DNA of 61,795 bases, taken from a virus. The stretch is from the IMG/VR virus record IMGVR_UViG_3300031825_000009, positions 1 to 61,795 of that record. One strand, written 5' to 3'. A program made the position numbers and the translations under genes. The notes below the pieces were generated by a model that was given only the letters and a program-made list of their open reading frames with translations, was not told the origin of the DNA and ran no database searches. Of this stretch, positions 2,331 through 40,647 are shown piece by piece; position 1 is the first letter of the stretch, and the number at the start of each line of letters is the position of its first letter.

Positions 2331-3388
2331 CAGACGACCAGCCGGCCCCACGGGCGGACCACGACGCCACTGTAGCCGTCGAGGAGGGACACGCCGCTCT
2401 GGGCGATGCGCTCCAGGTCGTAGCGCTTCAGGCGATCTCGGGCCTCTCTGAGCCGCTTCTCGGCGACCGCAAGGGATGCCTGGGAGCCCCCGGTGGAGGC
2501 GGCCAGCGCCAGCGAGGCGGAGGCTACGGCAGCATCCTGGGCGGCCCTCGGCAGCTCGCCCCAGACGAGGCTCCAGACGGCCTTCACCGTGATGGCCTTC
2601 TCGAACACAAAGGAGCCGGTGGTCGTGTTGATCAGCCGGCGCTCGGTGCCCACGAGCCGCACGGCCACGGGTGCCAGGAGCGGATCGGTGCAGTCGACAT
2701 GGAGGACGCCGCTCGGGAGGACGATGTGGCCGGCCTCGTTGGGCGTGAGCACGAGGCCCTTGGTGGTGTTGAAGAACCACCCCTCGGCGAGGATGCTCTC
2801 GACCTCCGGGACGAGGAGGCGCTGGCTGCGCCGCGGGAGCGGGCCTAGGCGGTCCTCGAATGCCTTCTCGATCTCCTCGCGCTCCAGCCGCAGGCGGGCG
2901 TAGCGGAGGCGCCGGTCAGCCGCTTCGAGGAGCTTCTCCTCGGCCGCCGACGACAGGATGATGTCCAAGATGGCCTGGGCGACCGCCACGTCCTGCACGA
3001 TGCGGGGCATCTCGTCCCACGCCAGCAGCCACGTCACCTGGACGGTGATCGGGCTGGTGAACGCCAGCGAATGCGTGTCCGATCGGAAGAGGGTGCGGAC
3101 GCCCGCGTACCTGCGCTCGGAGACCGTCAGATCCGGCGGGTTAGTGACCGCGACCTGGATGGCCTTGTTCGGCACCAGGATGCGGCCGTTGGGCTGCGGG
3201 GCCAGGGTAAGCCCGCTGGTGGTGTTGAAGTACCAGCCCTCGGCCATGAGGCTTTCGGCGCTGGTCGTCAGGAGGAGTTGAGCCCGCTCAGCCAGGGGAC
3301 CACCCTGGGCGACGGACGCTACCGCCTCTTCCTGGAGGCCGGCCAGCACAAGGTTGACGGCCTCAAGCATCGTGAGTTGTTCGGCCAT
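2330..3388 (-). CDS. Tail tubular protein A (T7 gp11-like gatekeeper) with internal duplication
   Basis: This belongs to the T7 gp11 family, which forms a ring under the portal and gates the DNA channel. The family is usually about 200 residues; this protein has 352. The extra length is a second copy of the same fold. AEGWYFNTT at residues 49-57 recurs as AEGWFFNTT at 201-209, SPITVQVTWLLAWDEMPRIVQD near 112-133 recurs as KAITVKAVWSLVWGELPRAAQD near 264-285, and an AERR/AEKR-type helix follows each. The offset is about 152 residues. The ATG has GGAGG three bases upstream. A terminator separates it from the capsid gene. Homology and position are clear; the structural effect of the duplication is inference. 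Confidence 0.92.
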   Translation of the reverse strand: MAEQLTMLEAVNLVLAGLQEEAVASVAQGGPLAERAQLLLTTSAESLMAEGWYFNTTSGLTLAPQPNGRILVPNKAIQVAVTNPPDLTVSERRYAGVRTLFRSDTHSLAFTSPITVQVTWLLAWDEMPRIVQDVAVAQAILDIILSSAAEEKLLEAADRRLRYARLRLEREEIEKAFEDRLGPLPRRSQRLLVPEVESILAEGWFFNTTKGLVLTPNEAGHIVLPSGVLHVDCTDPLLAPVAVRLVGTERRLINTTTGSFVFEKAITVKAVWSLVWGELPRAAQDAAVASASLALAASTGGSQASLAVAEKRLREARDRLKRYDLERIAQSGVSLLDGYSGVVVRPWGRLVV

Positions 3389-6347: not shown

Positions 6348-6504
6348 AGGTGACCACCGCGATGCCGTTGGAGTGGACCTTGCGGGTGGCCTTGCGGCCG
6401 TCCTCGGTGGTGATCTCGGTCACGGCCAGGGCCGGTCCGGCCACCGGGGCCGTCGGGGTCTCGGCAGACGCCTCGGGGGCGTCCGCGGCAGGCTTACGCG
6501 CTAT
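6340..6504 (-). CDS. Possible small protein between portal and scaffold, AUA start
   Basis: A 54-codon frame bridges the portal stop and scaffold start, ending in a conserved-looking segment (VTEITTEDGRKATRKVHSNG). It contains no ATG or TTG, and the only GTG codons lie late. An ATA at 6502-6504 is preceded by GGAG at seven bases. Its TGA overlaps the scaffold ATG region. It may instead be non-coding, or start at GTG 6444 or 6423. Confidence 0.35.
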   Translation of the reverse strand: MARKPAADAPEASAETPTAPVAGPALAVTEITTEDGRKATRKVHSNGIAVVTYG

Positions 6505-8041
6505 TGCTCGTCTCCATTTGCTTCTGGGCCATTCCGCCCATTTGGTTGATGGCGTTCGGCCCGAGCTTCTCGGCGAGCTGCATGAGCATGGCCTGCTGCT
6601 GCTGGGCCTGGACTTCCTCCTTGGACAGGAGGAGGCCGTCGATCTCGATCCCGAGGGCGACCGCCCGCCGGGTCAGGTAGTCCTGCCAGTCGATGTACTG
6701 CGCGAGCTGCGGCGCGATCTGGACGGTGGCTGCGAGCGCGTCGAGGCGGTCGAGGTCCTGCCCGCGGCCGATCGCTTCGAGGCCCGTCACGACCGCCGGC
6801 TTGATCTCCGGCGGCAGCGGCGGAAGCTCGCCCTGCTTCTGGAGCTGGAACATGCGGCGGTTGATGAACGGGAGCTGGAGCTCGACGGACATGAGGGAGT
6901 AGATTCCTCCCATCGCGTCGTCCAGCTCGCGGGCCATGAAGCGGATCTCCTCCGCCGTCACCCGCTCGCCATTCCGCTGGATCGCGGTGTTGAGGAGGAA
7001 CGCGAAGGAGAGGCGCTGCTCCAGGGCCGCGACGCGCTCCAGGGTGACCCTGAAGTCCGCGTACTTCTCGACCTGGAACGCCTTGACGGCGTCGTGCTCG
7101 GCGACGACGAAGCCGCCGTTGACGCAGCCTGTGAGGTCGTCCGGTCGGACCGTGGCGCCGGGCTTGATCAGGTTGATGATGCGGGCCGCGATCTGGGCGG
7201 CATCATCGAGCGCCTTGGACTGCGTCTCCAGGGTCGCGAGATCGCCGATGTACTCCTCGACGAAGCCGCGGCCGTAGTCCTCGCCGTCGACCTTCATCCA
7301 GCGAACGGCGATCCACGGGGTCTTGTCGGTCGGGAAGGTGCCGATGGAGCCGGGGACGACGATGCCCTCGATCTCCTGGTGCGTCTTGTACCGCTTCTTC
7401 GGCCCTTCGAGCTGGACGTAGGTGTAGACGTCCACCGTGTCGACCTCGGGGGTCTTGGCGTCAGCGGGCTTCACAACGTCCACGGCGGCCCGAACCTTCT
7501 CGGGGAGCGTCTCTCGGGCGACCGCCTCCTTCACGACGATCTCCAGGACCGTGCCGTCCGGGGACCGCTTCACGACGTACTTGTCGAGGCGGAACACGCG
7601 GAGGCCGCCGGAGGGCGGAAGGTAGAGAAGGACGTTGCCGGAGACGGCCAGGAGGCGGAAGGCTTCGTAGAAGGAGACCCGCAGGGCCTCGGCGTCCATC
7701 GTCTGGATGACCTTGCGGACGATCTTGGCGAGCCCGCGATCGACCTCGGCCTTCATGCCCTGCTGCTTCGTCAGCTCCTCAAGGGTCATCTCGTCGATGG
7801 CCAGCTTGAAGAAGGGGACGTTGGGCGGGAACTGGCTGATCAGGAGCTTCGCGGCGATGTTGTTTAGGCCGCGAGCCCCGATGCTCTGGTACGGGCTCGG
7901 CAGGGCGGCCCCAGGCTGGAGGCCCTCCGGAGGGAACAGGGCCGGGATAGTGAGCGTTGCGCACTTCCGGGCCATGTCCAGGTAGGGCTGTCGTGTCGCC
8001 TGGAGCCGGGCATACCGAGCGGAGGCGATGCCCTCGCTCAA
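6494..8041 (-). CDS. Portal / head-tail connector (T7 gp8-like)
   Basis: A 515-residue connector protein of the T7 gp8 family, the dodecameric portal through which DNA is packaged. Typical signatures are the N-terminal RYARLQATRQPYLDMARKCA, the GEDYGRGFVEEYIGDLATLE block in the middle, RVTAEEIRFMARELDDAMGG, and a glutamine-rich C-terminus. The start is TTG at 8041, overlapping the TGA of the gp7.3-like gene (TTGA). This continues the 4-nt overlap pattern of the block. Length and gene order agree with T7. Confidence 0.95.
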   Translation of the reverse strand: MSEGIASARYARLQATRQPYLDMARKCATLTIPALFPPEGLQPGAALPSPYQSIGARGLNNIAAKLLISQFPPNVPFFKLAIDEMTLEELTKQQGMKAEVDRGLAKIVRKVIQTMDAEALRVSFYEAFRLLAVSGNVLLYLPPSGGLRVFRLDKYVVKRSPDGTVLEIVVKEAVARETLPEKVRAAVDVVKPADAKTPEVDTVDVYTYVQLEGPKKRYKTHQEIEGIVVPGSIGTFPTDKTPWIAVRWMKVDGEDYGRGFVEEYIGDLATLETQSKALDDAAQIAARIINLIKPGATVRPDDLTGCVNGGFVVAEHDAVKAFQVEKYADFRVTLERVAALEQRLSFAFLLNTAIQRNGERVTAEEIRFMARELDDAMGGIYSLMSVELQLPFINRRMFQLQKQGELPPLPPEIKPAVVTGLEAIGRGQDLDRLDALAATVQIAPQLAQYIDWQDYLTRRAVALGIEIDGLLLSKEEVQAQQQQAMLMQLAEKLGPNAINQMGGMAQKQMETSNSA

Positions 8042-21821: not shown

Positions 21822-24383
21822 CTACGCGAAGAAGAACGGGGACGAGAGGACCTCGGACAGGTCCAGCGTTCCCTGAGGTGGCAGCTCCGGGACCTCCTTG
21901 CGAAGGTCCTCGGGGAGCTGGCCGAGGAGGCGCTCGCGGAACTCGGCGAGCGGGTCGTGGTCGGTGTACATGCCGACGAAGGCGGCCCGAAGCTCGCGGG
22001 CGAGCGTGTCCGTGTCGGCGGCATGGGTGCCGTAGCTGTCGTGGACCATCGCGAACGACGCGATGCCGGCGGCTTTGGCCCGGAGGACCGTGAGCGTCAG
22101 CGCTGCCGCGTCCAGCGAGTGGACGAAGTTCGGAGCGATGGCGCTCGCCTGCCTGAGCTTGGCGATCTCCCCGGTGTCCTCCCGCACGAGCGGGCGGACG
22201 ATCTGCCCGTGAATGCGGGTCTTGACGCGCCGGTCGTGGTGGGCGGCGTAGCGCTGGTAGACCAGGAACCCGGACGGGGCGGCCCAGGTCAGCGGAATGT
22301 CCGCCTTTCCGGCCACTCGGGCGGCCGCCTGGAGCCACGACATGCCGACCCTCGCGGCCACCACGACTTGGCCGATCGAGGCCCAGACGAGCGACCCGAG
22401 CCAGCCGACGGCGGCGCTCCACTCCTCCTCGGGGACGTCGAGCGAGGCGCCGGCTGCGATCTTCTCGCGGACCGCGTCCCGCACGTAGTCGCGGCAGGAG
22501 GTGATGGTGCCGCCGTAGGGGAGGACCATGACCGACCGCTTGGTGATCTTGCGGTCGATCCCGAAGTCGAGGAAGGCGTGCGCCCAGGATCGCGTCGTCT
22601 CCTCCTCCACGCATTCATGGAGGGGGCGTGTGGCCACGTCCAGCAGGCGCTCCTCAACTACCTTGGCGACCTCCCCGTACACGTCCTGGGGCCGATCGCT
22701 CGGCACGAGGTTGACGGCTCGGCCGCCGACCGGGTCCCGGAGCATGGCCGAGTAGTGCTGGAGGCCGTTGCAGGAGCCGTCGAGGGCGATCGGCAGGGAC
22801 GAGCGAAACGCCAGCCCCTCGCGGAGGTAGCCGGACCACTCGTGGCAGGCCGCCAGGAACGACCAGGGGCTATCCGCGCCGGTCCACCAGCGGTTCGCGA
22901 GCGGGTCTGCGGCGACCGCCTGGATGGCCTCCCGGTGCCCGTCCACCCACGCTCGGCGGGCGTCGAAGGGGACCTTGTCCTCGCCCCAGGTGTTCGCCGT
23001 GTGGACCGCGAGCCAGTTGGCGGCGGCCTCCGTGCCCAGGGGCTTGCCCTCGGCGAACGTCAGGAGGCCCTTGGCGAGGTCGTCGCCCTGGGGCTGAAGC
23101 CACCGCGGCAGGGCATAGAGCCGCCCGCGGAAGTCCAGGTTGTGCGGGAAGTACATGGCCTCCCGCTCGGCGTAGTCCTCGGCGATCCGCAGGCACTCGG
23201 CGACGCTGCGCCGTTGGGTGACCAGCTCGGACCTGAGCCGGTAGACGTCGTGCGCCTCCCGTCGCCAGACCCGCCGGGCCTCCTCGTTGGTCTCGATGTC
23301 CTCCGGCTTGGCCGGGACCGGCGGATCGTCCCGCGGCGGCAGGATCGGAATGTCGAGCCCGCCGTCCCAGATGGCCTTGGCGACCTCCAGGACAGGGCGG
23401 TTCACCCGCCAAGGGGTCTCCTGGACGGCGTTGAGGGCGCCGGTGACGCGGCTCAGGTCCGCCTCGGCGGTCAGAAGCCGGCCATGCTCGGCCCGGTTCG
23501 AGAACTTCACGAGGCCGGCCCGCTGGAGCCTCTCGGTCCAGTAGCCGCCGCTCCGGAGCCCGGTCCAGGGCTTCGGCGGGATGACACACGGCCGGGCGGC
23601 GGGGGCGAGCCCCTCGACACGGCGGTTGTAGTCCGTCACCCAGGAGGCAGCCGCCGGCTCCAGGGCGAGCATGGTGGTCGTCTTGGGCACGCCGCGGACC
23701 ATCTTCCGCGCGGTGTCGAGTCGCACCATGCCGGTGGCGTCGATCAGCAACTCGACCAGCTTCGCCCCGACGATGACGCGCTCGCCGGCCGTCCACCGGG
23801 TGGGCTCGATCCCCTCCCGGAACATGGCGACCGAGATGGCCCGGCGCTTGTGGATCTCGTTCGAGGTCGTCTCGCGGAAGCGCCGCTCCCACCAGCGCCA
23901 GAGCGACGGGTGGGCCGCCTCGAAGCGGGCGACGGACGCCTCGACCTCCAGAGCCGTGCAGATCGCGTTGGCGACCGGAGCGAGTGGCTGCGGGCCGGAT
24001 GCGAGGCCGTCGAGGACGTGGCGGGCGGTGAGGTAGGCGATCTCGTCGGGGTCCATGTCCCCGACCAGGAGGACCGCCGTGTGGCGCGGCCCTGGGCGGC
24101 CGCTGCGGGCGTCCTCGAAGAACGATCGGATGGCCTCGGAGAGCGGTCCGACGACCGTCGTCAAGAGGCGCCTGTAGCCGGCGGCCTGGGTGGGGTGACC
24201 GCGTTCCTCGGCCCGCTTCAGGCGGTAGCGGAACACGTCGATCCCCTCGTCGTACATGCGGTCCTCGATCTCCTCTTGGACCGGCCAGAGCGGGTGGTCG
24301 GTAGGCGAACAGAACGTGATCGCGGGGCTTTCCTTTCTCGCAATTTCAAGACCGCTAGGCCACGCCTTACGCCACGGTGGCAC
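21822..24383 (-). CDS. Single-subunit DNA-dependent RNA polymerase (T7 gp1-like)
   Basis: The defining enzyme of Autographiviridae, transcribing the phage middle and late genes. PCVIPPKPWTGLRSGGYW, NLDFRGRLYALPRWLQPQGD, ALDGSCNGLQHYSAMLRDPV (catalytic Asp), TKRSVMVLPYGG (with the catalytic Lys/Tyr region) and APNFVHSLDAAALTL then FAMVHDSYGTHAAD (second catalytic Asp) all align with T7. It ends SSPFFFA, like the T7 FAFA foot. From GTG 24383 it is 853 residues (T7: 883). That GTG has no ribosome site. ATC at 24318-24320, ten bases after GAAAGGA, would give 832 residues and may be the true start. Its 5' end is about 120 bp from the tRNA 3' end. Confidence 0.96.
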   Translation of the reverse strand: MPPWRKAWPSGLEIARKESPAITFCSPTDHPLWPVQEEIEDRMYDEGIDVFRYRLKRAEERGHPTQAAGYRRLLTTVVGPLSEAIRSFFEDARSGRPGPRHTAVLLVGDMDPDEIAYLTARHVLDGLASGPQPLAPVANAICTALEVEASVARFEAAHPSLWRWWERRFRETTSNEIHKRRAISVAMFREGIEPTRWTAGERVIVGAKLVELLIDATGMVRLDTARKMVRGVPKTTTMLALEPAAASWVTDYNRRVEGLAPAARPCVIPPKPWTGLRSGGYWTERLQRAGLVKFSNRAEHGRLLTAEADLSRVTGALNAVQETPWRVNRPVLEVAKAIWDGGLDIPILPPRDDPPVPAKPEDIETNEEARRVWRREAHDVYRLRSELVTQRRSVAECLRIAEDYAEREAMYFPHNLDFRGRLYALPRWLQPQGDDLAKGLLTFAEGKPLGTEAAANWLAVHTANTWGEDKVPFDARRAWVDGHREAIQAVAADPLANRWWTGADSPWSFLAACHEWSGYLREGLAFRSSLPIALDGSCNGLQHYSAMLRDPVGGRAVNLVPSDRPQDVYGEVAKVVEERLLDVATRPLHECVEEETTRSWAHAFLDFGIDRKITKRSVMVLPYGGTITSCRDYVRDAVREKIAAGASLDVPEEEWSAAVGWLGSLVWASIGQVVVAARVGMSWLQAAARVAGKADIPLTWAAPSGFLVYQRYAAHHDRRVKTRIHGQIVRPLVREDTGEIAKLRQASAIAPNFVHSLDAAALTLTVLRAKAAGIASFAMVHDSYGTHAADTDTLARELRAAFVGMYTDHDPLAEFRERLLGQLPEDLRKEVPELPPQGTLDLSEVLSSPFFFA

Positions 24384-24503: not shown

Positions 24504-24577
24504 TGGAGGTGACGGCCGGATTTGAACCGGCGTACACGGATTTGCAGTCCGCTGCGTAACCACTCCGCCACGTCACC
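24504..24577 (-). tRNA. tRNA-Cys (anticodon GCA)
   Basis: Acceptor stem GGTGACG/CGTCACC, anticodon stem-loop GCGGA-CTGCAAA-TCCGT with anticodon GCA, T-stem GCCGG-TTCAAAT-CCGGC, and CCA encoded at 24504-24506. The gene is complete. Its 3' end faces the T7-like block and its 5' end faces the siphophage integrase 106 bp away. tRNA 3' ends are the usual attachment sites of T7-like lysogens. Confidence 0.96.
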
Positions 24578-30194: not shown

Positions 30195-30377
30195 TCATTG
30201 TCCGGGCTTTTCCGTCTTCGGCTTACCAGCCTTGTGCTTGTCGGTTGGCGGTGCCGCCTTGGCGATGCGCCGGAGAACAGCGTTGAAGCACGCTTCGTCG
30301 TTGCTAAAGTCGAGGTCCCGCGCGGCGGCTTGAAATTTCGCAGACTGCGATTCTCCGGACTTCTTGGCTTGGCTCAT
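30195..30377 (-). CDS. Hypothetical protein, 60 aa
   Basis: Starts MSQAKKSGESQSAKFQAAAR and contains DLDFSNDEACFNAVLRRIAK, ending with a Lys/Pro-rich tail. Small genes of this kind are frequent in alphaproteobacterial genomes and mobile elements. Function unknown. Confidence 0.6.
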   Translation of the reverse strand: MSQAKKSGESQSAKFQAAARDLDFSNDEACFNAVLRRIAKAAPPTDKHKAGKPKTEKPGQ

Positions 30378-30427
30378 GCCCGAACCTCAATATCGCATGT
30401 TCGTTGATGATACCGGCAATGTGCATA

Positions 30428-30619
30428 CACAGCCCCGACTTCAATCCGATAGAGCTGGCCTTCTCGAAGATGAAGGCCATCCTCAGGAAGGCGGCCGCCC
30501 GCACCCTCCCGGACCTCTGGGATGCGATCCGAGGCGCCATCGACGCCGTCACTCCGGGCGATGCACGCAGCTTCTTCACCGCCTGCGGCTATGAACCCGA
30601 ATGATCCGAATCTGCTCTA
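30428..30619 (+). mobile_element. Remnant (3' end) of an IS630-family element
   Basis: About 190 bp almost identical to the last part of the complete element at 31037-32092, differing at only a few bases (for example GATGCG for GACGCG). It retains the transposase end [16 protein letters not shown] and the right terminal sequence ending CTGCTCTAG. The left part is lost, so it is non-autonomous debris of an earlier insertion. Confidence 0.9.
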
Positions 30620-30679
30620 GCACTGATCTGCGTTTGTGACATACTTCCCGCGGCGATTGTGCCGCAAGGGGAGGGCGTT

Positions 30680-31039
30680 ATGCCGGCTTCGCTCATAATA
30701 GAGACTGGACGATACACTTACGCAAATTACCTGCCATATGCTGGCAAAAAGAGTGCTCAAATTAAACTGGATAAATTCAAGGGCAAGTTTACTGAAATAA
30801 CGGATATCGTTGCTGGCATAGAAGGAATGCGTATCGCCAGTGTCGGCTACAATGCGGAGGAAGAAAAAGGAAGAAATAATCCATTAGTCCCTAACGAAAA
30901 CGATGTGATGTCCTCGGACACGGAGTTTAGTGTCAGGGGGCACGTGCTCGATGACAAACTATCGTGCGTAGTCGAAATTGTGGTAACGAGAGGGTACTTA
31001 CAGAACATAACTTTCACCTACATCATAATTGGACACTAG
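30680..31039 (+). CDS. Low-GC cargo protein, 119 aa, unknown
   Basis: Starts MPASLIIETGRYTYANYLPY, with KKSAQIKLDKFKGKFTEITD and ends VTRGYLQNITFTYIIIGH. AAGGGGAGG lies just before the ATG. AT-rich compared with the prophage backbone, so probably acquired cargo. The IS630 element inserted exactly at its TAG stop codon (31037-31039). The TA target duplication recreates TAG, so the protein itself is unchanged. No family recognised. Confidence 0.65.
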   Translation: MPASLIIETGRYTYANYLPYAGKKSAQIKLDKFKGKFTEITDIVAGIEGMRIASVGYNAEEEKGRNNPLVPNENDVMSSDTEFSVRGHVLDDKLSCVVEIVVTRGYLQNITFTYIIIGH

Positions 31040-32092
31040 AGCACATTCATCCGGGATTGAATCGGCTGGGGATTCCCTTGGCGAGTGATTTCTGATTCAC
31101 CGTGTGGACTGGCGAAGGAGGCCGGCTCGCATGGCGAACGCTCTTTCACTCGATCTTCGGCAGAGGGTTGTTGCAGCGGTCGAGGCCGGCGCGTCACGGC
31201 GGCAGGCGGCGGAGCGGTTCGGCGTCGGCGTCTCCTCTGCCATCCGCTGGGTTGCCCAGTCACAGGCGACGGGAGACCTCGAGCCGCGGCGGCGGGGCGG
31301 ATGTCGCCCGAGCCGCATCGACGGGCACGCCGATCTCATCAAGGACTGGATCGGCAGAGAGTTGGATCTGACGCTGGCGGAGATCGCCGAGAGGCTCGGC
31401 GAAGCCGTCGGCTACCGGCCGCCGCCGAGCGTGATGCACGACTTCTTCAAGCGCCGCGGCGTGACGCGCAAAAAAAGACGGCCCACGCCGCCGAGCAGGA
31501 CCGGCCGGACGTAGCGCACCGGCGACACACCTGGTTCGACGGCCAGCCGGACCTCGATCCCGAGCGCCTCGTCTCCATCGACGAAAGCGGCACCTCCACC
31601 AAGATGGCCCGCCTCTATGGCCGCGCGTCCCGGGGCGAGCGATGCCGGGCGCCGGTTCCGCACGGGCACTGGAAGACGACGACGTTCGTCGGGGGCCTCA
31701 CCCTTGCGGGCATCGTCGCGCCGATGACCATCGACGGCGCGATGACCGGCGCCGCCTTCCTCGCCTATGTCGAGCAGGTTCTGGTCCCGACCCTCAGGCC
31801 GGGCGACGTCGTCGTCCTTGACAATCTGCCGGCCCACAAGCCGGGCGCCATTCGCGAGGTCATTGAGGCCGCAGGAGCCGTCATGCACTTCCTGCCGCCA
31901 TACAGCCGCGACTTCAATCCGATAGAGCTGGCCTTCTCGAAGATGAAGGCCATCCTCAGGAAGGCGGCCGCCCGCACCCTCCCGGACCTCTGGGACGCGA
32001 TCCGAGGCGCCATCGACGCCGTCACTCCGGGCGATGCACGCAGCTTCTTCACCGCCTGCGGCCATGAACCCGAATGATCCGAATCTGCTCTA
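31037..32092 (+). mobile_element. Complete IS630-family insertion sequence
   Basis: Bounded by TA dinucleotides at 31037-31038 and 32091-32092, with terminal inverted repeats TAGAGCA..ATTC (left) and GAATCTGCTCTA (right). TA target duplication and a two-frame DDE transposase are typical of IS630/Tc1-mariner elements. All catalytic residues are present, so it may be active. Confidence 0.9.
31131..32077 (+). CDS. IS630-family transposase, two frames joined by -1 frameshift
   Basis: Frame A (31131-31514) encodes the HTH DNA-binding part, [20 protein letters not shown] then [20 protein letters not shown]. Frame B (from about 31470 to 32077) encodes the DDE catalytic domain: [22 protein letters not shown] and [12 protein letters not shown] give Asp, Asp and Glu. 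They overlap at a run of seven A (CGC AAA AAA AGA around 31470), a standard -1 slippery site that would fuse RRGVTRKK to [10 protein letters not shown]. The ATG has GAAGGAGG upstream. An inactivating indel is possible but the A-run overlap is the usual arrangement in this family. Confidence 0.88.
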
Positions 32093-32543: not shown

Positions 32544-33305
32544 TCAGTCCGTCGTAAATCGTCCGATGACGCGTCCAACGATGGAGATTTCTTCGAGCAC
32601 GCGCTCGCGCGGTGTATGCCGCGGGTTGTCTGACTGCACCAGAACCCGTATCGGCTCTTCGCCGATGACCGAAACAACCTCGAGCCGCTTGACTTCGACC
32701 CCGCCGAACGCGTCGGCCAACGCATAGACGCCTGGGGGCGATGGCCGTCGGTGGGTGATGTCGACGAAGACGACGTCACCGTTGCGGATCGTGGGCATCA
32801 TCGAGTCGCCGGCGACGGGGAAGCACGCGACACTGCTCGCCTTCGCGTTCAGCTGAGACCGCAACAGCCATGGCGGCAGCCGCCACCAGTCCCGCAACTC
32901 CTCGGCGGCATAGGTGTGGCCGTTGGAACCCGCCTCCTGAGTGACGATCGACAATGTGCCCGGCCCGAGCCCGCCGGTGACGAGAACCTCAGGGATGGCG
33001 TCGTCGGGAATGCCGCGCCGACCGGTCTCGCTGCCGATGGTCGGAGGATGCTCGGGCGCGCGCTCCTGGAATGAGCGCACGGGCGCACCGAGAGAGACCT
33101 CGTCGACGCCGAGAATGTCCGCGAGCCGCTGCCGGTCGGTCTCCTTCAGATGCCGCGGGACGCCCCTGTTCAGGAACTGTTGGATGAAGGCCGGGTTGCG
33201 GCCGATCTCCCGCGACAGCGTCGACATGTCGATCTCGCGATCCTCGATGAGGGTCGCGAGGAACACGCGAGCGGGCGAGCGGTCGAACAGTTTGGTCGGA
33301 GCCAT
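32544..33305 (-). CDS. CI/LexA-type phage repressor with S24 peptidase domain
   Basis: A 253-residue repressor. N-terminal HTH: FLATLIEDREIDMSTLSREI, GRNPAFIQQFLNRG, LADILGVDEVSLG. C-terminal LexA/CI autoprotease domain: PEVLVTGGLGPG (near the Ala-Gly-like cleavage region), VACFPVAGDSMMPTIRNGDV with the catalytic Ser, and GVEVKRLEVV with the catalytic Lys. It should hold the lysogenic state and respond to RecA activation. ATG 33305 lies inside an operator, so the protein can repress its own start. A TTG at 33326 is an alternative. Operators flank the gene on the right and recur at OL. Confidence 0.94.
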   Translation of the reverse strand: MAPTKLFDRSPARVFLATLIEDREIDMSTLSREIGRNPAFIQQFLNRGVPRHLKETDRQRLADILGVDEVSLGAPVRSFQERAPEHPPTIGSETGRRGIPDDAIPEVLVTGGLGPGTLSIVTQEAGSNGHTYAAEELRDWWRLPPWLLRSQLNAKASSVACFPVAGDSMMPTIRNGDVVFVDITHRRPSPPGVYALADAFGGVEVKRLEVVSVIGEEPIRVLVQSDNPRHTPRERVLEEISIVGRVIGRFTTD

Positions 33306-33379
33306 AGGAGAAATCCTATTGATCAACCCGCTTGCACGCGAATAGGATTATGCCTATCTTCGGATAGGAAGTTGCCTAC
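33304..33379. promoter_or_regulatory. Right operator cluster (OR) between repressor and cro-position gene
   Basis: Three 16-bp sites of the ATAGG-N6-CCTAT type: 33304-33319 (ATAGGAGAAATCCTAT), 33342-33357 (ATAGGATTATGCCTAT) and 33364-33379 (ATAGGAAGTTGCCTAC). The first overlaps the repressor start codon. Divergent promoters must lie here. This is the lambda OR layout with three sites. Confidence 0.9.
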
Positions 33380-34063: not shown

Positions 34064-34540
34064 GTGGACAGCAGAGCTTTGCCCGCCGGCCTGATTCCGG
34101 CGCTGAAGGAGGCGACCCGCGCCGCGGTGCTCGCCGCCGGCGGCGTCAAGCGCGTGTGCGAGATCACCCGGCTCTCGGCGCCCTACCTCTCGAAGTGCCA
34201 GGGCGACGCCTATCCGGACCTGCTGCCGCCGTGGGCGATGGCACTCGTCGAATTCCACGCCCAGGCCCCCGTCTTCGCCAACGCCTTCGCCTCGCTCACG
34301 TCGCACCGGGTGATGCCGATCGCCGAAGGCGGCGGCGACGACAGCGGCGGGCACATCGCCGACCTCGCCGCGGTGGCGATGGCGGCCGCGGCGGTGACCG
34401 CCACGATGGCCGAAAACGCCGCCGACGGCGTGGTGACCGCGCGCGAGGCGAAGGGCGAGATGCGCCAGATCGGCGCGCTCGAGCGGGTGATGGACCGGCG
34501 CAAGCGCCGGCTCGCCGTGGTGGTGGGAGGCGGGGCATGA
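34064..34540 (+). CDS. Putative phage regulator, CII-like
   Basis: A 158-residue protein. LPAGLIPALKEATRAAVLAA then GGVKRVCEITRLSAPYLSKC gives an HTH with the recognition helix in RLSAPYLSKCQG, followed by a conserved stretch (YPDLLPPWAMALVEFHAQAP) similar to phage CII/CP76-type regulators. The C-terminal half is an Ala-rich helix with KGEMRQIGALERVMDRRKRR. GTG start. Located after the cro gene, where lambda has cII. A 119-bp gap (33945-34063) precedes it. Confidence 0.65.
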   Translation: MDSRALPAGLIPALKEATRAAVLAAGGVKRVCEITRLSAPYLSKCQGDAYPDLLPPWAMALVEFHAQAPVFANAFASLTSHRVMPIAEGGGDDSGGHIADLAAVAMAAAAVTATMAENAADGVVTAREAKGEMRQIGALERVMDRRKRRLAVVVGGGA

Positions 34541-34572: not shown

Positions 34573-35571
34573 TCAACCATTCCTGCGCCGACAGCCACGT
34601 GGCGGGGCGATATCGTCTACAATCTCTCCAATTCTATCGTCACTCTCCCGGTCAATGTAGTACGCATAAACCATATTCTTTTCATTATTCATGAACTGAT
34701 GAATATCCGGTTTATTCGAGCATTCGAAATGAACTATTTTACTTCTAAGCTCGGTCGCGGGAGAGAATCTAATATCAACCTTCTCGTTTTCATAACTCCA
34801 TATAGAACCAACGACGCGGTTACTCGCGAATCGAACAACTCCGGTCACTCTGCTGAGATTGAAATATATTGTACCCCCATATATCTCAGTCTCTCTGGAA
34901 TTCATATCTGCGTCTATAATATTAAGTTCTTCGGCATTTATTTCTACCACATTTCCAGAAAATCTCACGTTTCTAATACTCCCGAAGAGTCGAATTTTGC
35001 AGTAATATTTGCAGTATATCTCCGCCCAGGAGAGGTCGGCATTTCTTGCGTCAATGCCATTTCCGGAGAGCACGTCAATCTTCGCGCCTCGGAGATTGGC
35101 ACTTTGAATATTCACCGAATCCATTCCTGCATTCGTGAGCTTGGCTCCCCTGAGGTCTGCCCCCTTCAGTTGAGCATTCGTCAGGTCCGCTCCATTGAGG
35201 TTAAGCCCGACCAGATAGGCGCCGGCCGCTCCCTCGGTGGGCGGGCTCAAGTCGATGCCGCTCAAAGACTGTGCGGCGCCACCGAAGAGACCGAGCCACG
35301 GTGGGCTCGCCAGATACTCCATCGCCTCGACCTTTCCGGAGTTGCCGGGCGCCGGGGTCGTGAGGAGTTGCCATGCGCGGGCGCGCCGCTCGGCCGGGCG
35401 CTCGCTGAGATCGATGACGAAAGCGGCGACCGCGATGACGACGGCGAACACCTCCGCGAGCCGGAAGGCGCGAACGACGCTGCTGCCCTCGGCGCGATCG
35501 AACCATGTCCGGCGCGGAGAAGTCTCCTTCGGAGATCCACGGCTTTCGCCGGGTTCCGGCAGTGCGGTCAT
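34573..35571 (-). CDS. Membrane-anchored pentapeptide-repeat protein (cargo gene)
   Basis: A 332-residue protein. A cytoplasmic N-terminus is followed by one membrane helix (RLAEVFAVVIAVAAFVIDLS) and then a pentapeptide-repeat run, LNLNGADLTNAQLKGADLRG then AKLTNAG and SANLRGAKIDVL, which builds a right-handed quadrilateral helix. The last half (about residues 185-320) has beta-helix-like NVRFSGNVVEINAEELNIID patterns. The 3' half is AT-rich, unlike the phage backbone, and it runs opposite to the surrounding operon. All this suggests a cargo gene expressed in the lysogen. An exclusion or defence role is inference; no known defence family is identified. Confidence 0.75.
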   Translation of the reverse strand: MTALPEPGESRGSPKETSPRRTWFDRAEGSSVVRAFRLAEVFAVVIAVAAFVIDLSERPAERRARAWQLLTTPAPGNSGKVEAMEYLASPPWLGLFGGAAQSLSGIDLSPPTEGAAGAYLVGLNLNGADLTNAQLKGADLRGAKLTNAGMDSVNIQSANLRGAKIDVLSGNGIDARNADLSWAEIYCKYYCKIRLFGSIRNVRFSGNVVEINAEELNIIDADMNSRETEIYGGTIYFNLSRVTGVVRFASNRVVGSIWSYENEKVDIRFSPATELRSKIVHFECSNKPDIHQFMNNEKNMVYAYYIDRESDDRIGEIVDDIAPPRGCRRRNG

Positions 35572-35642
35572 GACGTCCCCCCCTTCGCGACCACCGTCAC
35601 GCTACTCGCGAGCCGGCCCTCAGCAAAGCGGGAAGCACCGTG

Positions 35643-37613
35643 ATGCGCGCCGCGACGGACCTTTTCGGGGCGATCGCCGGGCCGCGGCCAGCGCCGGGCG
35701 ACGAGCTCATCGTCGACTCGTTCGCCGGCGGCGGCGGGGCCTCGACCGGGATCGAGATGGCGCTCGGCCGCTCGCCCGACGTCGCCATCAACCACGATTC
35801 CTGGGCGCTCCGGGTCCACGCTGCGAACCACCCGGCAACCTGGCACCTCTCGAAGAACGTCTGGCAGGTCGACCCGCTCGAGGCCGTGCGCGGCCATGCC
35901 GTCGGCCTCGCCTGGTTCTCGCCGGACTGCAAGCACTTCTCGAAGGCGAAGGGCGGCAAGCCGGTGCGCAAGAGCGTGCGCGATCTCGCCTGGGTGGTGG
36001 TGCTGTGGGCGAAGCGGGTCCGGCCGCGCGTCATCATCCTGGAAAACGTCGAGGAATTCCGCGACTGGGGGCCGATCACCGCCGAGGGGCGGCCCTGCCC
36101 GGAGCGCAAGGGCGAGACCTTCGCGCGGTGGGTGGGGGAATTGAAGCGGCTCGGCTACCGGGTCGAGCACCGCGAGTTGCGCGCCTGCGACTACGGCGCG
36201 CCGACGACGCGCAAGCGGCTGTTCCTGATCGCCCGGCGCGACGGGCGGCCGATCGTCTGGCCGGCGGCGACGCACGGGCGGCCCGACGACCCGGAGGTGC
36301 TGGCCGGCCGCAAGCGGCCGTGGCGGACCGCGGCGGAAATCATCGACTGGTCGCTGCCGTGCCCCTCGATCTTCGCCTCGAGCGCGGAGATCAGGGCGGC
36401 GCTCGGGGTCACCGCCAAGCGGCCGCTCGCCGAGGCGACCATGGCGCGAATTGCGAAAGGCGTGTGGCGCTACGTGGTGACGGCGAAGCGGCCGTTCATC
36501 GTGCCGGTGACGCACGCCGGCGACCTGCGCGTGCACTCGGCCGACGAGCCGCTGCGGACGATCACCACGGCCATGCGCGGTGAGCTGGCGGTGGTGGCGC
36601 CGGCGCTCGCCGCGCCGTTCGCGAGCTACGGCCAGCAGGGCGGCGCCTCGCGGCCGCTCGACGCGCCGCACTCGACGATCACGGCGAGCCGGAAGGATAC
36701 GAACGGGCTCGTCGTGCCCACTCTCGTCCCGGTCGATCTCGTCGCCGGGGCGATGGTGCAGACGGGCTATGGCGAGCGCAAAGGGCAGGCCCCGCGGGCG
36801 CTCGACGTCGAGGCGCCGATCGGCACGCAGGTCGCCGGGGCGACGAAGCACGCCGTGGTCGCGGCGCACCTCTCGATCATGCGCAACTCGGACAAGCCAT
36901 TCACGGCGGCCGACGAGCCGATGCACACGATCACGGCCGAAGGGGCACGCCCGGCCCTCGTCTCGGCCTTCCTCGCGCAGCATAACACCGGCGTCGTCGG
37001 GCACGAGGCCGGCAAGCCGCTCTCGACGATCACCTCGGGCGGGATGCACGGCGTCTCGCAGCAGGCGATCGTGGCGGCGCACCTGCAGCGGCAGTTCTCG
37101 CGCTCGGTCGGGGCGGAGGCCGGCGAGCCGCTGCGCACCGATTCCGAGCGCGGCAAGGATGCCGTGGTCGCGGCGCACCTCCTCAACCTGCACGGCGGCG
37201 ACCGGCGCGACCGCGCCGCCGACGAGCCGGTGCCGACCATCGCCGCCGGCGGCAACCACGTCGCGGAAGTCCGCGCCTTCCTGATGCGCTACTACGGCGA
37301 GGGCGGGCAGTGGTCGGCCTGCGACGAGCCGGTGCCGACGGACACGGTGAAGCCGCGCTTCGGGCTCGTGACCGTTTCCGGCGTCGAGTACCAGATCGTC
37401 GACATCGGCATGCGGATGCTGACGCCGCGCGAGCGCTTCGACGCGCAGGGTTTTCCGCCCGGCTACATCATCGACACGACGCTCGACGGCAAGCCGATCA
37501 CCGCGGAGATCCAGGGCCGGCTCGTCGGCAACTCGGTCTGCCCGCCGATGGCCGCCGCCCTCGTCGCCGCCAACTGCGCCGACCTCGCGGTCGCGCAGGA
37601 GGCGGCGGAGTGA
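35643..37613 (+). CDS. C5-cytosine DNA methyltransferase with repeat-rich target domain
   Basis: A 656-residue methyltransferase. Motif I DSFAGGGGASTGIEMALG binds AdoMet. Motif IV is FSPDCKHFSKAKGG, with the catalytic Cys in an S-P-D-C variant of the usual P-C. Motif VI is ENVEEF, motif VIII YGAPTTRKRLFLIARRD, and motifs IX-X lie in MRMLTPRERFDAQGFPPGY and GRLVGNSVCPPMA. Between VIII and IX, residues about 295-565 contain eight spaced copies of a (A/C)DEPxxTIT-like motif (ADEPLRTIT, DAPHSTIT, ADEPMHTIT, GKPLSTIT, GEPLRTDS, ADEPVPTIA, DEPVPTDT and a weaker one). This gives an unusually long, repetitive recognition region. It likely protects phage DNA from host restriction. A GTG just before the ATG is possible. 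Confidence 0.93.
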   Translation: MRAATDLFGAIAGPRPAPGDELIVDSFAGGGGASTGIEMALGRSPDVAINHDSWALRVHAANHPATWHLSKNVWQVDPLEAVRGHAVGLAWFSPDCKHFSKAKGGKPVRKSVRDLAWVVVLWAKRVRPRVIILENVEEFRDWGPITAEGRPCPERKGETFARWVGELKRLGYRVEHRELRACDYGAPTTRKRLFLIARRDGRPIVWPAATHGRPDDPEVLAGRKRPWRTAAEIIDWSLPCPSIFASSAEIRAALGVTAKRPLAEATMARIAKGVWRYVVTAKRPFIVPVTHAGDLRVHSADEPLRTITTAMRGELAVVAPALAAPFASYGQQGGASRPLDAPHSTITASRKDTNGLVVPTLVPVDLVAGAMVQTGYGERKGQAPRALDVEAPIGTQVAGATKHAVVAAHLSIMRNSDKPFTAADEPMHTITAEGARPALVSAFLAQHNTGVVGHEAGKPLSTITSGGMHGVSQQAIVAAHLQRQFSRSVGAEAGEPLRTDSERGKDAVVAAHLLNLHGGDRRDRAADEPVPTIAAGGNHVAEVRAFLMRYYGEGGQWSACDEPVPTDTVKPRFGLVTVSGVEYQIVDIGMRMLTPRERFDAQGFPPGYIIDTTLDGKPITAEIQGRLVGNSVCPPMAAALVAANCADLAVAQEAAE

Positions 37614-37699: not shown

Positions 37700-38497
37700 T
37701 CAACCTCGATCGATCTCAGCGTCTATTTTTCTTACAAGCGAGTAAACCCTTCTTTCTTCGGAGGACGCCGCACTTTTAATTTTGACTATCGCCTCGTGCA
37801 ATTCGCTCAAGCTCTTCTCACATTTCGCGATAAATCGACCCGCACTATTGCTTCCGGACGGAAGATTCCAATATTCACTACTTATCCCCTCCAATACGAC
37901 CCCGTAGGCGCGGGTTACAACCCTCTCAAGATTGTCCGCAGCATCCATGATTCCGCTGGAGGCCGCATCAATCCTTGCACTATCAACCAATTCGAGGATC
38001 GAATTGGACGCCTCGTACGCATTCACTATCGTTATTTCATCTTTTGTGATGAATTCATCACGGGACGTATCTTCTCCATTAGGCTGATAAGCCATTCTTG
38101 TTCTGTTTATAGTAAAATTCATTATTCTTATGAATTTATCAATATCCTTGTTCTTTCTTTTTATCTCTACCCTGTACTTCAAAATAGATGCTCTTGTCTT
38201 CTTCAAATCCGTGCGTCGATTAATGTTAAACTGGTGCCAGACCGGTCGGGTGGCAACATACGCCGCGATCAACGTGAGCGCACCGCCGAGCGCCGTCGCT
38301 GCGACACCAAGCCATTCACGCGCGCATTGGATAGTGTTCTCGGAATCCGCTTTTCCGCACAGCGCAGGAATTCCGACATTGTCTTCAAAATAGAACCTAC
38401 AAATCAGCATTCCGAGAATGGTGCTAAATACGCCGCACGCTACGATCGGAATAATCCCGCCCGGATTTTCCTTCTTGCTCAATACTATCACTCCCAT
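37700..38497 (-). CDS. Two-TM protein with cytoplasmic coiled coil (cargo gene)
   Basis: A 265-residue protein. Two hydrophobic segments (GGIIPIVACGVFSTILGMLI and LGVAATALGGALTLIAAYVA) bracket a short periplasmic loop with cysteines. Then comes a long charged cytoplasmic part (KKTRASILKYRVEIKRKNKD and AGRFIAKCEKSLSELHEAIV) predicted to be helical. It is AT-rich and opposite to the surrounding phage genes. The topology resembles phage and prophage exclusion or sensor proteins, but no family is recognised. TTG 38482 is an alternative start. The 272 bp after it (38498-38770) show no gene I can support. Confidence 0.65.
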   Translation of the reverse strand: MGVIVLSKKENPGGIIPIVACGVFSTILGMLICRFYFEDNVGIPALCGKADSENTIQCAREWLGVAATALGGALTLIAAYVATRPVWHQFNINRRTDLKKTRASILKYRVEIKRKNKDIDKFIRIMNFTINRTRMAYQPNGEDTSRDEFITKDEITIVNAYEASNSILELVDSARIDAASSGIMDAADNLERVVTRAYGVVLEGISSEYWNLPSGSNSAGRFIAKCEKSLSELHEAIVKIKSAASSEERRVYSLVRKIDAEIDRG

Positions 38498-38770: not shown

Positions 38771-39217
38771 TCAGGCGGCGACCGCCTCGACGATGAGGCG
38801 CACGCCGAGGGCGCGTGCGGCCTTGTCGAGCCGATCGAGCTTCGTGTTGTGCGACGGATCGAGGATCCGCCGCACCTCGCCTTCATCGAGGCCGAGCCGT
38901 GCCGCGAGCGCGACCTTGCTCACGCGGCTCGCCCGCCATGCGGACCAGACGGCCAGCTTGGCGGCGAAGGGGGCCGGCAGCGGAACGGCCACCTCCCCCT
39001 CGATGGGCGCGCTCGGGACCGGGATGTCCATCCCGTCCTTCATGCGCCCGCCGATCGCCACGACGAGGGCATCCTCGGCCTGATCCAGCGCCTCGGCTTC
39101 GGTCCGGCCGGCGGTGATCACCTCCGGCAGATCACGGCACGAGACGAGGATTTCGTCACCTTCGCCCGACCGTTCCAAGCGGACCGGCCATGCGAAGGAC
39201 CGCGGGTGCTCAGACAT
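38771..39217 (-). CDS. hicB: HicB-type antitoxin
   Basis: A 148-residue antitoxin. The N-terminal partial RNase-H-like fold has LERSGEGDEILVSCRDLPEV, ITAGRTEAEALDQAEDALVV and AIGGRMKDGMDIPVPS. The C-terminal DNA-binding HTH (SKVALAARLGLDEGEVRRIL, then THKLDRLDKAARALGVRL-like) is the usual HicB arrangement. It neutralises HicA and represses the operon. ATG 39217 has GGAG upstream. It lies 51 bp downstream of hicA. Confidence 0.92.
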   Translation of the reverse strand: MSEHPRSFAWPVRLERSGEGDEILVSCRDLPEVITAGRTEAEALDQAEDALVVAIGGRMKDGMDIPVPSAPIEGEVAVPLPAPFAAKLAVWSAWRASRVSKVALAARLGLDEGEVRRILDPSHNTKLDRLDKAARALGVRLIVEAVAA

Positions 39218-39268
39218 CAATTCCGATCTCCTTTCATCGGCGGCGTCCGTGAGGGGGCTCGCGCCCCC

Positions 39269-39475
39269 TCACAACTCCGCCGGATCAATTCCGACCTGTT
39301 CGCAGATCCGGCGAATGTGCATCGGGCTCAAGTCGCCGTCCTGCACCGTCGTTACCCGGCCTCCGAACCTGACCCGGTAGTGGCTGCCTTTGCCCAAGGT
39401 CTTGTCGACCTCGATTTCCAGCCCCCGCTTCCGGGCCAACCGGCGGAGCTTCCGGATCAGCTGATCTCTCAGCAT
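39269..39475 (-). CDS. hicA: HicA-type mRNA interferase toxin
   Basis: A 68-residue dsRBD-like toxin. LRRLARKRGLEIEVDKTLGK, GSHYRVRFGGRVTTV and LSPMHIRRICEQVGI match the HicA fold, with the catalytic His in KGSHY. It cleaves mRNAs when unbound. Encoded before hicB on the minus strand, as usual, and preceded by palindromic operator sites. In a prophage it can act as an addiction or abortive-infection module. Confidence 0.92.
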   Translation of the reverse strand: MLRDQLIRKLRRLARKRGLEIEVDKTLGKGSHYRVRFGGRVTTVQDGDLSPMHIRRICEQVGIDPAEL

Positions 39476-39505: not shown

Positions 39506-39558
39506 ATATCGGACAAAAATGTCCGCCCGTCAAGCGTGATCGGCGCTTTTTGTCCGAT
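39506..39558. promoter_or_regulatory. Candidate hicAB operator
   Basis: ATCGGACAAAAATGTCCG contains the palindrome CGGACA-AAAA-TGTCCG at 39510-39525, and the same ATCGGACAAAAA recurs in reverse as TTTTTGTCCGAT ending at 39558. They lie just upstream of hicA, where the HicB HTH should bind. The second site is close to the primase start on the other strand, so both directions could be controlled. Confidence 0.7.
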
Positions 39559-39576
39559 TTTTTCGGAGCGCACGGC

Positions 39577-40647
39577 ATGACCTCGCGCGATGACGGCGAC
39601 GTCATCCGCGGGCGGCTCGTCGACGAGCTCGAGCGGCTGCTCGACGCCTATTGCCCTGGGTGGCTCGAGGTGCGCGGCGAAGGCTATCTCGCGCCGAAGA
39701 GCCGGGGCGACCTCGGCTCCTGGCGGGTGACGCTCGACGGGCAGCGGCGCGGGCTCTGGTATCGCCACAGCCAAGGCCTCGGCGGCGACGTGCTGGCGCT
39801 TCTCGCCTATTGCCTGTCCGGCAGCGTCAAGGTGGACGCGCGCACCTTCGAGGAGGCGCGGCGCTTCCTCGGCATCGAGGGGCGGCCGGACCCGGCCGAG
39901 GCCGAGAGGCGCCGGCGCGAGGCGGAGGCGCGGCGCGCCGCGCACGCCCGCGACGCCGCCGAGGCGCGGCTGCGCGAGACGATGAAGGCGCGCGACATCT
40001 GGCGCGCCGCCCGGCCGGCGGCGGGGACGCCGGTCGCCCGGTGGCTCGCCGCGCGCGGGCTCGACCTCGCCGCCGTGCCGCCGACGCTGCGGTTTCACCC
40101 GCGCCTGCCCTACTGGTGGTCGCCGCCGCGCGCCAAAGGCGAGGCGCCGCCGCGGCCCGTCGTCATCCACGACGGCCCGGCGATGGTCGGCCTCGTGACG
40201 CACGGGGAGACGGGGCGGCTCGTCGGGGTGCACCTGACGTGGCTCGCCGAGGATGGGCGGGCGAAGGCGGCGATCACCGCGCCGGACGGCAGGCCGCAGC
40301 TCGCCCGCAAGATGCGCGGCGCGCCGCGGGGCGGACACGTGCGCCTGGCGCCGCCGGCGGCGGCGATCGTGGTGGCCGAGGGGGTCGAGACCGCGCTCGC
40401 CGTGATGGCGGCGACGGGGCTGCCGACCTTCGCCGCGCTCTCGCTCGGCAACCTCGCCGCGCCCCTACCGGCCGGCGTCGGCGCCGTAGTGCTGGCGGTC
40501 GATGCCGACGAGGCCGACCCGGCCCGCGCCGAGACGACGAAGCGCGCCGCGGCCGAGGCGCACGCCGCCCGCGGGCTCGCCGTGAGCATCGCCCGGCCGC
40601 CGGCGGGGCACGACTTCAACTCGCTCTATCGAGGCGGGACGCGATGA
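39577..40647 (+). CDS. Toprim-domain DNA primase
   Basis: A 356-residue phage primase. The N-terminal part has a degenerate zinc/primase-like region (LRQGSWRVTL-type beta strands, GLGGDVLALLAYCLSG). A charged helix precedes PAAGTPVARWLAARGLDLAA and TLRFHPRLPYWW (DUF7146-like). The Toprim domain is VVAEGVETALAVMAATGLPT (catalytic Glu) and VVLAVDADEADPA (D-x-D). It ends with the GHDFNSLYRGG typical of this group. ATG 39577 is preceded by CGGAG. Its TGA overlaps the helicase ATG (ATGA), so both are co-translated for phage replication. Confidence 0.9.
   Translation: MTSRDDGDVIRGRLVDELERLLDAYCPGWLEVRGEGYLAPKSRGDLGSWRVTLDGQRRGLWYRHSQGLGGDVLALLAYCLSGSVKVDARTFEEARRFLGIEGRPDPAEAERRRREAEARRAAHARDAAEARLRETMKARDIWRAARPAAGTPVARWLAARGLDLAAVPPTLRFHPRLPYWWSPPRAKGEAPPRPVVIHDGPAMVGLVTHGETGRLVGVHLTWLAEDGRAKAAITAPDGRPQLARKMRGAPRGGHVRLAPPAAAIVVAEGVETALAVMAATGLPTFAALSLGNLAAPLPAGVGAVVLAVDADEADPARAETTKRAAAEAHAARGLAVSIARPPAGHDFNSLYRGGTR

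What the first reader, a model, noticed from the sequence alone, without database searches (positions are those of the whole stretch)
34573..35571. Membrane-tethered pentapeptide-repeat cargo protein
One membrane helix then a pentapeptide run and a beta-helix-like tail, AT-rich and reversed relative to the lytic operon. Pentapeptide proteins can mimic DNA. A membrane-bound version in a prophage could sense or block incoming phage DNA. The divergent placement next to the methyltransferase suggests a combined restriction/anti-restriction island.
Basis: inference. Interest (0 to 1): 0.65.

Follow-up and report, generated by a model that had tools for sequence, protein, structure and literature searches.

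The report
Membrane-tethered beta-solenoid prophage cargo protein
A dormant virus in a bacterial genome carries a backwards-inserted gene for a membrane-anchored, coil-shaped protein of a so far unnamed family that recurs in unrelated dormant viruses, probably sits just outside the inner membrane, and may shield the host cell from competing viruses.

Summary
The ORF is real (34573-35571, minus strand, 332 aa): one membrane helix (35-53), a conserved neck (AWQLLTTPAPGNSGK...GIDLS), ten pentapeptide turns (118-167) and a degenerate beta-helix tail. It is antisense to the phage genes around it. Low G+C starts only at codon 146 (GC3 0.78 to 0.44), so the gene is a composition mosaic. No Pfam, NCBIfam or PADLOC model covers the neck. 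A search from the neck found 19 further members in 17 other loci, the two named ones in Hyphomicrobiales. Of these 18 loci, 13 are prophages or prophage edges; 12 of 15 prophage-borne genes are antisense to the flanking phage operon. One copy lies beside AbiC-, SIR2- and HNH-type defence genes. Charge bias and paired cysteines suggest, without proving, a periplasmic solenoid. Best reading: a cargo gene acting at the inner membrane as a superinfection-exclusion factor, like Ltp or SieA. Cargo status is well supported; function is inferred. The methyltransferase is an ordinary phage gene: none of 80 homologous loci examined carries the family, so the 'restriction/anti-restriction island' is not supported. 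DNA mimicry is possible but disfavoured.

The parts
34573..35571 (-). The gene: 332-aa membrane-anchored pentapeptide-repeat beta-solenoid protein
   Evidence: ORF; PF00805 E 2.2e-11; AF2 models
35577..35583 (-). G7 run 5 bases upstream of the ATG, Shine-Dalgarno-like
   Evidence: sequence read; a resemblance only
35413..35469 (-). Predicted membrane helix, residues 35-53
   Evidence: Kyte-Doolittle mean 2.37; within AF2 helix 31-71
35245..35379 (-). Conserved neck, residues 65-109 (RAWQLLTTPAPGNSGKVEAMEYL...GIDLS)
   Evidence: shared by the family, alignments; no Pfam/NCBIfam model covers it in the window protein
35071..35220 (-). Ten uninterrupted pentapeptide turns, residues 118-167
   Evidence: PF00805
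34720..35070 (-). Degenerate beta-helix tail, residues 168-284, low G+C
   Evidence: AF2 strands; pLDDT falls from about 92 to about 43 by residue 284
35133..35134 (-). Composition break inside the gene at codon 146/147
   Evidence: GC3 0.78 to 0.44, z 6.3, 0 of 5000 permutations
34780..34806 (-). SIWSYENEK (256-264), degenerate form of the family's C-terminal W-x-aromatic cap; W258
   Evidence: W258 in a 90%-or-more conserved column; cap seen in 18 of 20 members with a post hoc pattern
34064..34540 (+). CII-like regulator, convergent with the gene, 32 bp between stops
   Evidence: phrog_101 E 6.5e-8
35640..37613 (+). Phage-type cytosine methyltransferase, divergent from the gene, 68 bp between starts
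   Evidence: PF00145 E 1e-22; phrog_116 E 3e-93
37700..38497 (-). Second reversed AT-rich membrane cargo ORF (two hydrophobic segments)
   Evidence: GC 0.466; weak similarity to L071 ORF, E 7e-4
39550..40647 (+). Phage primase
   Evidence: phrog_510 E 1.5e-54
32544..33326 (-). S24-type phage repressor
   Evidence: PF00717 E 9.8e-11; phrog_4 E 3.5e-22

Best explanation
It is a prophage cargo ('moron') gene of a so far unnamed family. Shown by sequence and prediction: a one-helix membrane anchor, a conserved neck, a pentapeptide beta-solenoid of variable length and sequence, and antisense insertion into phage operons in many prophages. Inferred with moderate support: a short N-terminus in the cytoplasm, a single inner-membrane helix, and the solenoid in the periplasm held by disulfides. 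Inferred and untested: expressed from its own promoter in the lysogen, the solenoid binds a component of a superinfecting phage's DNA-delivery machinery (tape-measure or ejection protein), or a host factor it needs, and stops genome entry, so that lysogens keep rivals out. The variable tail would set the specificity.
For: Family: 20 genes in 18 loci reached from the window's neck. Prophage location: 4 loci lie in IMG/VR virus records (window; L083/L084; L100/L110), and phage hallmark genes flank others. Antisense to the flanking phage operon in 12 of 15 prophage-borne genes, often with tight junctions: 2 and 13 bp in L098, 11 bp in L099, 4 bp in L100. L102: 187 bp from putAbiC (PF16872 E 3e-21), near SIR2 (PDC-S25 E 2.5e-164) and HNH (PDC-M68A E 1e-27) genes. 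N-side charge exceeds C-side in 14 of 18 members with a helix call. Even cysteine count after the helix in 19 of 20 versus 114 of 199 control genes, p 4e-4. Precedents: Ltp, a membrane-tethered extracytoplasmic repeat protein (passages, PMC3952083); SieA, an inner-membrane injection blocker (abstract and passages, PMC10883804).
Against: No functional data. The cysteine statistic is not robust to relatedness: single-linkage clustering leaves 7 groups, 6 all even, p 0.06; the window copy lacks the neck pair. Charge bias is contrary in L083 and L102 and tied in L101 and L127; the window itself is only +2 versus +1. Five loci (L101, L104, L108, L125, L127) are not shown to be prophages, and L126 is sense-oriented in a tail operon. 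Promoter and terminator scans found nothing. In Agrobacterium a Tn5 insertion in a pentapeptide-repeat gene, not known to be of this family, gave resistance to a phage, the opposite direction (passage, PMC10132094).
Confidence: 0.42

Rival explanations
1. Lysogenic conversion unrelated to phage defence: a periplasmic scaffold or envelope-modifying protein that changes host fitness.
For: Same anatomy and antisense cargo layout; some copies are outside recognisable prophages, next to envelope or core genes (L101 near an MFS gene, L125 near an outer-membrane lipoprotein YfiO gene). Of the neighbours scanned at other loci, only those of L102 matched defence families.
Against: Recurrent slot shared with other reversed membrane ORFs near repressor/CII/primase genes, and the L102 defence neighbourhood.
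Confidence: 0.25
2. Membrane-tethered abortive-infection or sensor component whose solenoid faces the cytoplasm, acting with a partner as in L102.
For: L102: same strand, 187 bp from putAbiC, with SIR2 and HNH defence-type genes near. Pentapeptide repeats occur fused to domains of predicted immune proteins (one passage, PMC10853773).
Against: Only one such locus of 18; no conserved partner gene was seen next to the other members; charge bias and paired cysteines point outward.
Confidence: 0.16
3. Cytoplasmic DNA mimic (Qnr/MfpA-like) that shields DNA from restriction or binds gyrase.
For: Same quadrilateral fold: the model aligns to QnrB1 (2xty_B, Z 15.4, rmsd 3.0, 173 aligned) and MfpA (2bm4_A, Z 14.8, rmsd 3.5, 171 aligned). 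NCBIfam Qnr and MfpA models touch the repeats only, far below cutoff.
Against: Membrane anchor; net charge -1 over the last 205 residues; designed pentapeptide solenoids and HetL align at least as well. Two DNA-mimic pentapeptide proteins, McbG and QnrB, did not affect BREX (passage, PMC7261183).
Confidence: 0.07
4. A decaying or chimeric copy without present function in this prophage.
For: Composition break at codon 146, tail without detected relatives in viral contigs, degenerate cap and missing neck cysteines.
Against: Open frame of 332 codons, ribosome-site-like G7, tail modelled as continuous beta-helix and conserved W258.
Confidence: 0.1

Closest known systems
Pentapeptide repeat proteins (PF00805 superfamily; HetL, NP275/276, Qnr, MfpA, designed beta1)
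   Same: Repeat register and quadrilateral beta-helix
   Different: N-terminal membrane helix and conserved neck not covered by the models matched; tail degenerate; phage-borne
Thylakoid-lumen pentapeptide proteins (2f3l, 3n90)
   Same: Precedent for the fold outside the cytoplasm; aligned at Z 11.0 each, rmsd 2.6 and 3.1, 121 and 133 aligned
   Different: Proteins of phototrophs, not phage cargo; a membrane tether was not looked for in them
Ltp superinfection-exclusion lipoprotein (phage TP-J34)
   Same: Membrane-tethered extracytoplasmic repeat domain encoded in a lysogeny module (passages, PMC3952083)
   Different: Lipid anchor, different repeats, Gram-positive host; no sequence relation tested here
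SieA (phage P22)
   Same: Prophage-expressed inner-membrane protein; its types are under 30% identical to one another (abstract, PMC10883804)
   Different: No pentapeptide solenoid is mentioned in the passages read; no sequence relation tested

Membership tests
Pentapeptide repeat protein (PF00805) | Tandem A(D/N)LXX repeats above Pfam cutoff | tested here: met
   43.5 bits against cutoff 20.2; ten turns in register
Pentapeptide repeat protein (PF00805) | Right-handed quadrilateral beta-helix | tested here: met
   predicted only: AF2; best 4ycq Z 17.4, rmsd 2.8, 172 aligned
New family defined here (anchor + neck + solenoid) | Neck shared with the other members | tested here: met
   match to the L100 member, 41% over 176 aa, E 1.7e-26; profile E 1.9e-31, but the window is a training row of that profile
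New family defined here (anchor + neck + solenoid) | C-terminal W-x-aromatic cap with (P/L)P | tested here: inconclusive
   W258 and Y260 kept, PP absent in the window copy
Superinfection-exclusion protein | Blocks DNA entry of other phages from a lysogen | not testable with these tools
   needs a wet experiment
Superinfection-exclusion protein | Extracytoplasmic or membrane location | tested here: inconclusive
   one helix; charge bias 14 of 18; cysteine parity 19 of 20 but 6 of 7 clusters
Qnr/MfpA-type DNA mimic | Match to a curated Qnr or MfpA model | tested here: not met
   best 19.4 bits for SmQnr (cutoff 460) and 19.3 for MfpA (cutoff 360)
Known anti-phage system (PADLOC 2023) | Match to a PADLOC model | tested here: not met
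   0 families at E up to 1 for the window protein; 0 at E up to 0.01 for the L102 member and the second L100 member
Restriction-modification island | Restriction enzyme paired with the methyltransferase | tested here: not met
   none among the neighbouring ORFs scanned (10 proteins, 5, 7); not every ORF of the window was scanned

The most novel reading that the evidence does not exclude
The family is a modular exclusion system of temperate phages: a constant inner-membrane anchor and neck carrying exchangeable periplasmic beta-solenoid heads, each aimed at a different rival phage's DNA-delivery protein. The window copy is caught after a head exchange, with the seam at codon 146 inside the solenoid.
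Probability: 0.15. Interest if true: 0.75.

Novelty: new variant of a known kind. Interest (0 to 1): 0.5.

Why it matters
Pentapeptide-repeat proteins are very common but few have known roles, and the best known act on gyrase inside the cell (recalled). A dispersed family that phages repeatedly carry backwards in their own operons, with a membrane anchor and a probable periplasmic solenoid, would give the fold a new place and job, and would add an exclusion mechanism in Hyphomicrobiales, where little is known (recalled). It can be tested with a few clones.

Tried and rejected
Restriction/anti-restriction island: rejected. DNA mimic: kept only as a minor rival. Direct relatives by whole-protein patterns: none in viral contigs; tblastn in phages and plasmids gave only partial hits, none covering 80% of the query; the L100 neck had no match in either. 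Tail-only scan found no relative. Promoter and terminator scan empty. Two first-pass hits were dropped as false after reading their ORFs: L090 (looks like a glutamate synthase small subunit, recalled) and L107 (unrelated ORF over the match). The weak hit L071 5160-6422 (E 0.01) overlaps the methyltransferase on the other strand and was not counted. Foldseek against solved structures gave nothing at E 1e-3 or better; against viral models one hit at 9.6e-4, a pentapeptide protein. Transposase search in plasmids to learn the host: no match. Papers: nine of ten searches used; in their listings, and in the passages read of eight papers (over nine papers), nothing described this family; most subscription papers and all preprints are outside the library.

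Frequencies, centre genome included: class 2 of 385 at E 1e-3, one being the centre and one false; order 6 of 397; family 3 of 151; phylum 3 of 398, one false, one the centre; family of G669 8 of 87; family of G464 1 of 4, the centre; order again with a wider profile 5 of 297; class of G930 1 of 48, the centre. These samples overlap and the first look caps candidates, so they are lower bounds.

Full report
What is there. The window is an IMG/VR virus record of 61,795 bases. The ORF at 34573-35571 (minus) encodes 332 aa. Residues 35-53 are hydrophobic. PF00805 matches at 117-147 (E 2.2e-11), and by eye in register the repeats run unbroken from 118 to 167. AlphaFold2 on 10 and on 20 family members gives helix 31-71, helix 80-88 and a beta-solenoid; in the second model pLDDT is 85 or more for most ten-residue blocks between residues 31 and 200, but about 27-51 over the last 60 residues.

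Surroundings. The gene is convergent with a CII-like regulator (34064-34540; phrog_101 E 6.5e-8), 32 bp away, and divergent from a cytosine methyltransferase (35640-37613), 68 bp away. Further right are a second reversed AT-rich two-helix ORF (37700-38497), a HicB-like ORF (38771-39220; PF15919 E 5.7e-5, below cutoff) and primase (39550-40647); to the left an S24 repressor (32544-33326). A profile of the neck found no member in 4452 ORFs of the 80 methyltransferase loci kept (best E 0.01, an ORF overlapping the methyltransferase on the other strand). Some of those loci carry other reversed, lower-G+C membrane ORFs in the same neighbourhood, for instance L058 5249-5938, directly upstream of the methyltransferase, and L071 8720-9529 downstream of it, so the region looks like a general cargo slot. 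That screen also listed ORFs that are probably spurious and was not given a chance level.

Family. After dropping two false hits there are 20 genes in 18 loci: window, L083, L084, L098, L099, L100 (two genes), L101, L102, L103, L104, L108, L121, L122, L123 (two genes), L124, L125, L126, L127. The two extra genes (L100 11430-12644 and L123 13151-14359) are 40% identical to each other. Of 10 members scanned, 8 have pentapeptide Pfam hits and none has a model over the neck; L083 and L104 have no pentapeptide hit. The family is rare: 6 of 397 and 5 of 297 sampled genomes of the order, but 8 of 87 in one family.

Where the members sit. Prophage or prophage edge, 13 of 18 loci: window; L083 and L084 (beside a terminase); L098 (VRR-NUC, SNF2 and integrase, with a weak polymerase hit); L099 (primase, CII, S24 repressor; a neighbouring ORF has only a marginal methyltransferase hit); L100 (also an IMG/VR contig; CII-like neighbour E 5e-4, below cutoff); L102 (P2-type tail gene and endolysin-like gene on one side); L103 (terminase; weak S24 hit); L121-L124 (replication, terminase, primase, CII, tape measure or integrase genes); L126 (tail gene). 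Not shown to be prophage: L101, L104, L108, L125, and L127 (an integrase 7 kb away). Antisense to the flanking phage operon: window, L083, L084, L098, L099, both in L100, L121, L122, both in L123, L124: 12 of 15 prophage-borne genes. L126 is sense; L102 and L103 are not clear-cut. These orientations rest on my own heuristic gene calls and on assigning loci by eye from the named hits.

Defence neighbourhood. In L102 the member is 187 bp from putAbiC (PF16872 E 3e-21), on the same strand; a SIR2 gene (PADLOC PDC-S25, E 2.5e-164) and an HNH gene (PDC-M68A, E 1e-27) lie within 3 kb. The member itself has no PADLOC hit. This is one locus.

Topology. With a helix called in 18 of 20 members, net charge in the 20 residues before the helix exceeds that after it in 14, equals it in 2 and is lower in 2. 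After the helix, cysteine number is even in 19 of 20, against 114 of 199 control genes with two or more cysteines (Fisher p 4e-4). Members are related; by single-linkage clusters it is 6 of 7 (p 0.06). Many members have a cysteine pair in the neck; the window lacks it but has four cysteines (187, 191, 284, 327). Together this favours, and does not prove, a periplasmic solenoid.

Mosaic composition. In the window gene GC3 falls from 0.78 to 0.44 at codon 146 (0 of 5000 permutations). Among the other ten genes tested, L108 (32 of 5000) and L103 (107 of 5000) show weaker breaks and eight none. A recent exchange of the solenoid is one explanation; the tail alone found no relative in viral contigs, so no donor is known.

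Mechanism and known analogues. Ltp of phage TP-J34 is a membrane-tethered extracytoplasmic repeat protein that stops DNA injection by acting on the tape-measure protein (passages, PMC3952083). [quoted passage not shown] The present family works, by inference, like these; membership in either is not claimed. Against the DNA-mimic idea, McbG and QnrB did not affect BREX (passage, PMC7261183), though that tests only one system. A contrary lead: a Tn5 insertion in an Agrobacterium pentapeptide-repeat gene made cells resistant to phage OLIVR1 (passage, PMC10132094); whether it is of this family was not tested.

Verdict. Observation confirmed with one refinement; cargo reading supported; island and DNA-mimic readings not supported; exclusion function proposed at 0.42.

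Noticed in passing
window 1-24400 (-): A T7-like phage segment (single-subunit RNA polymerase 21822-24383, phrog_414 E 3.5e-261; head-tail adaptor 6494-8041; tail protein 2330-3388) ends beside tRNA-Cys 24504-24577, while 42-58 kb carries a siphovirus-type terminase and tape measure on the other strand: the record seems to hold two phages.
   Followed up: partly
window 30304-32077: Two similar copies of a DDE_3 transposase end (30404-30604 and the end of 31085-32077, PF13358 E 6e-33) lie between the two phage segments.
   Followed up: no
window 37700-38497 (-); L099 5347-6174; L071 8720-9529; L123 11716-12483: Two-helix reversed membrane ORFs recur in the same early regions; pairwise similarity is weak (L071-L099 E 1.8e-6, window-L071 E 7e-4) and they may be a second cargo family.
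   Followed up: partly
L102 6114-13077: Defence-type cluster at the end of a P2-like prophage: HNH (PDC-M68A), putAbiC, pentapeptide member, SIR2 (PDC-S25).
   Followed up: partly
window 38771-39475 (-): A HicB-like ORF (PF15919 E 5.7e-5, below cutoff) and an adjacent small ORF with a relative in L057 look like a HicAB toxin-antitoxin pair, also reversed.
   Followed up: no
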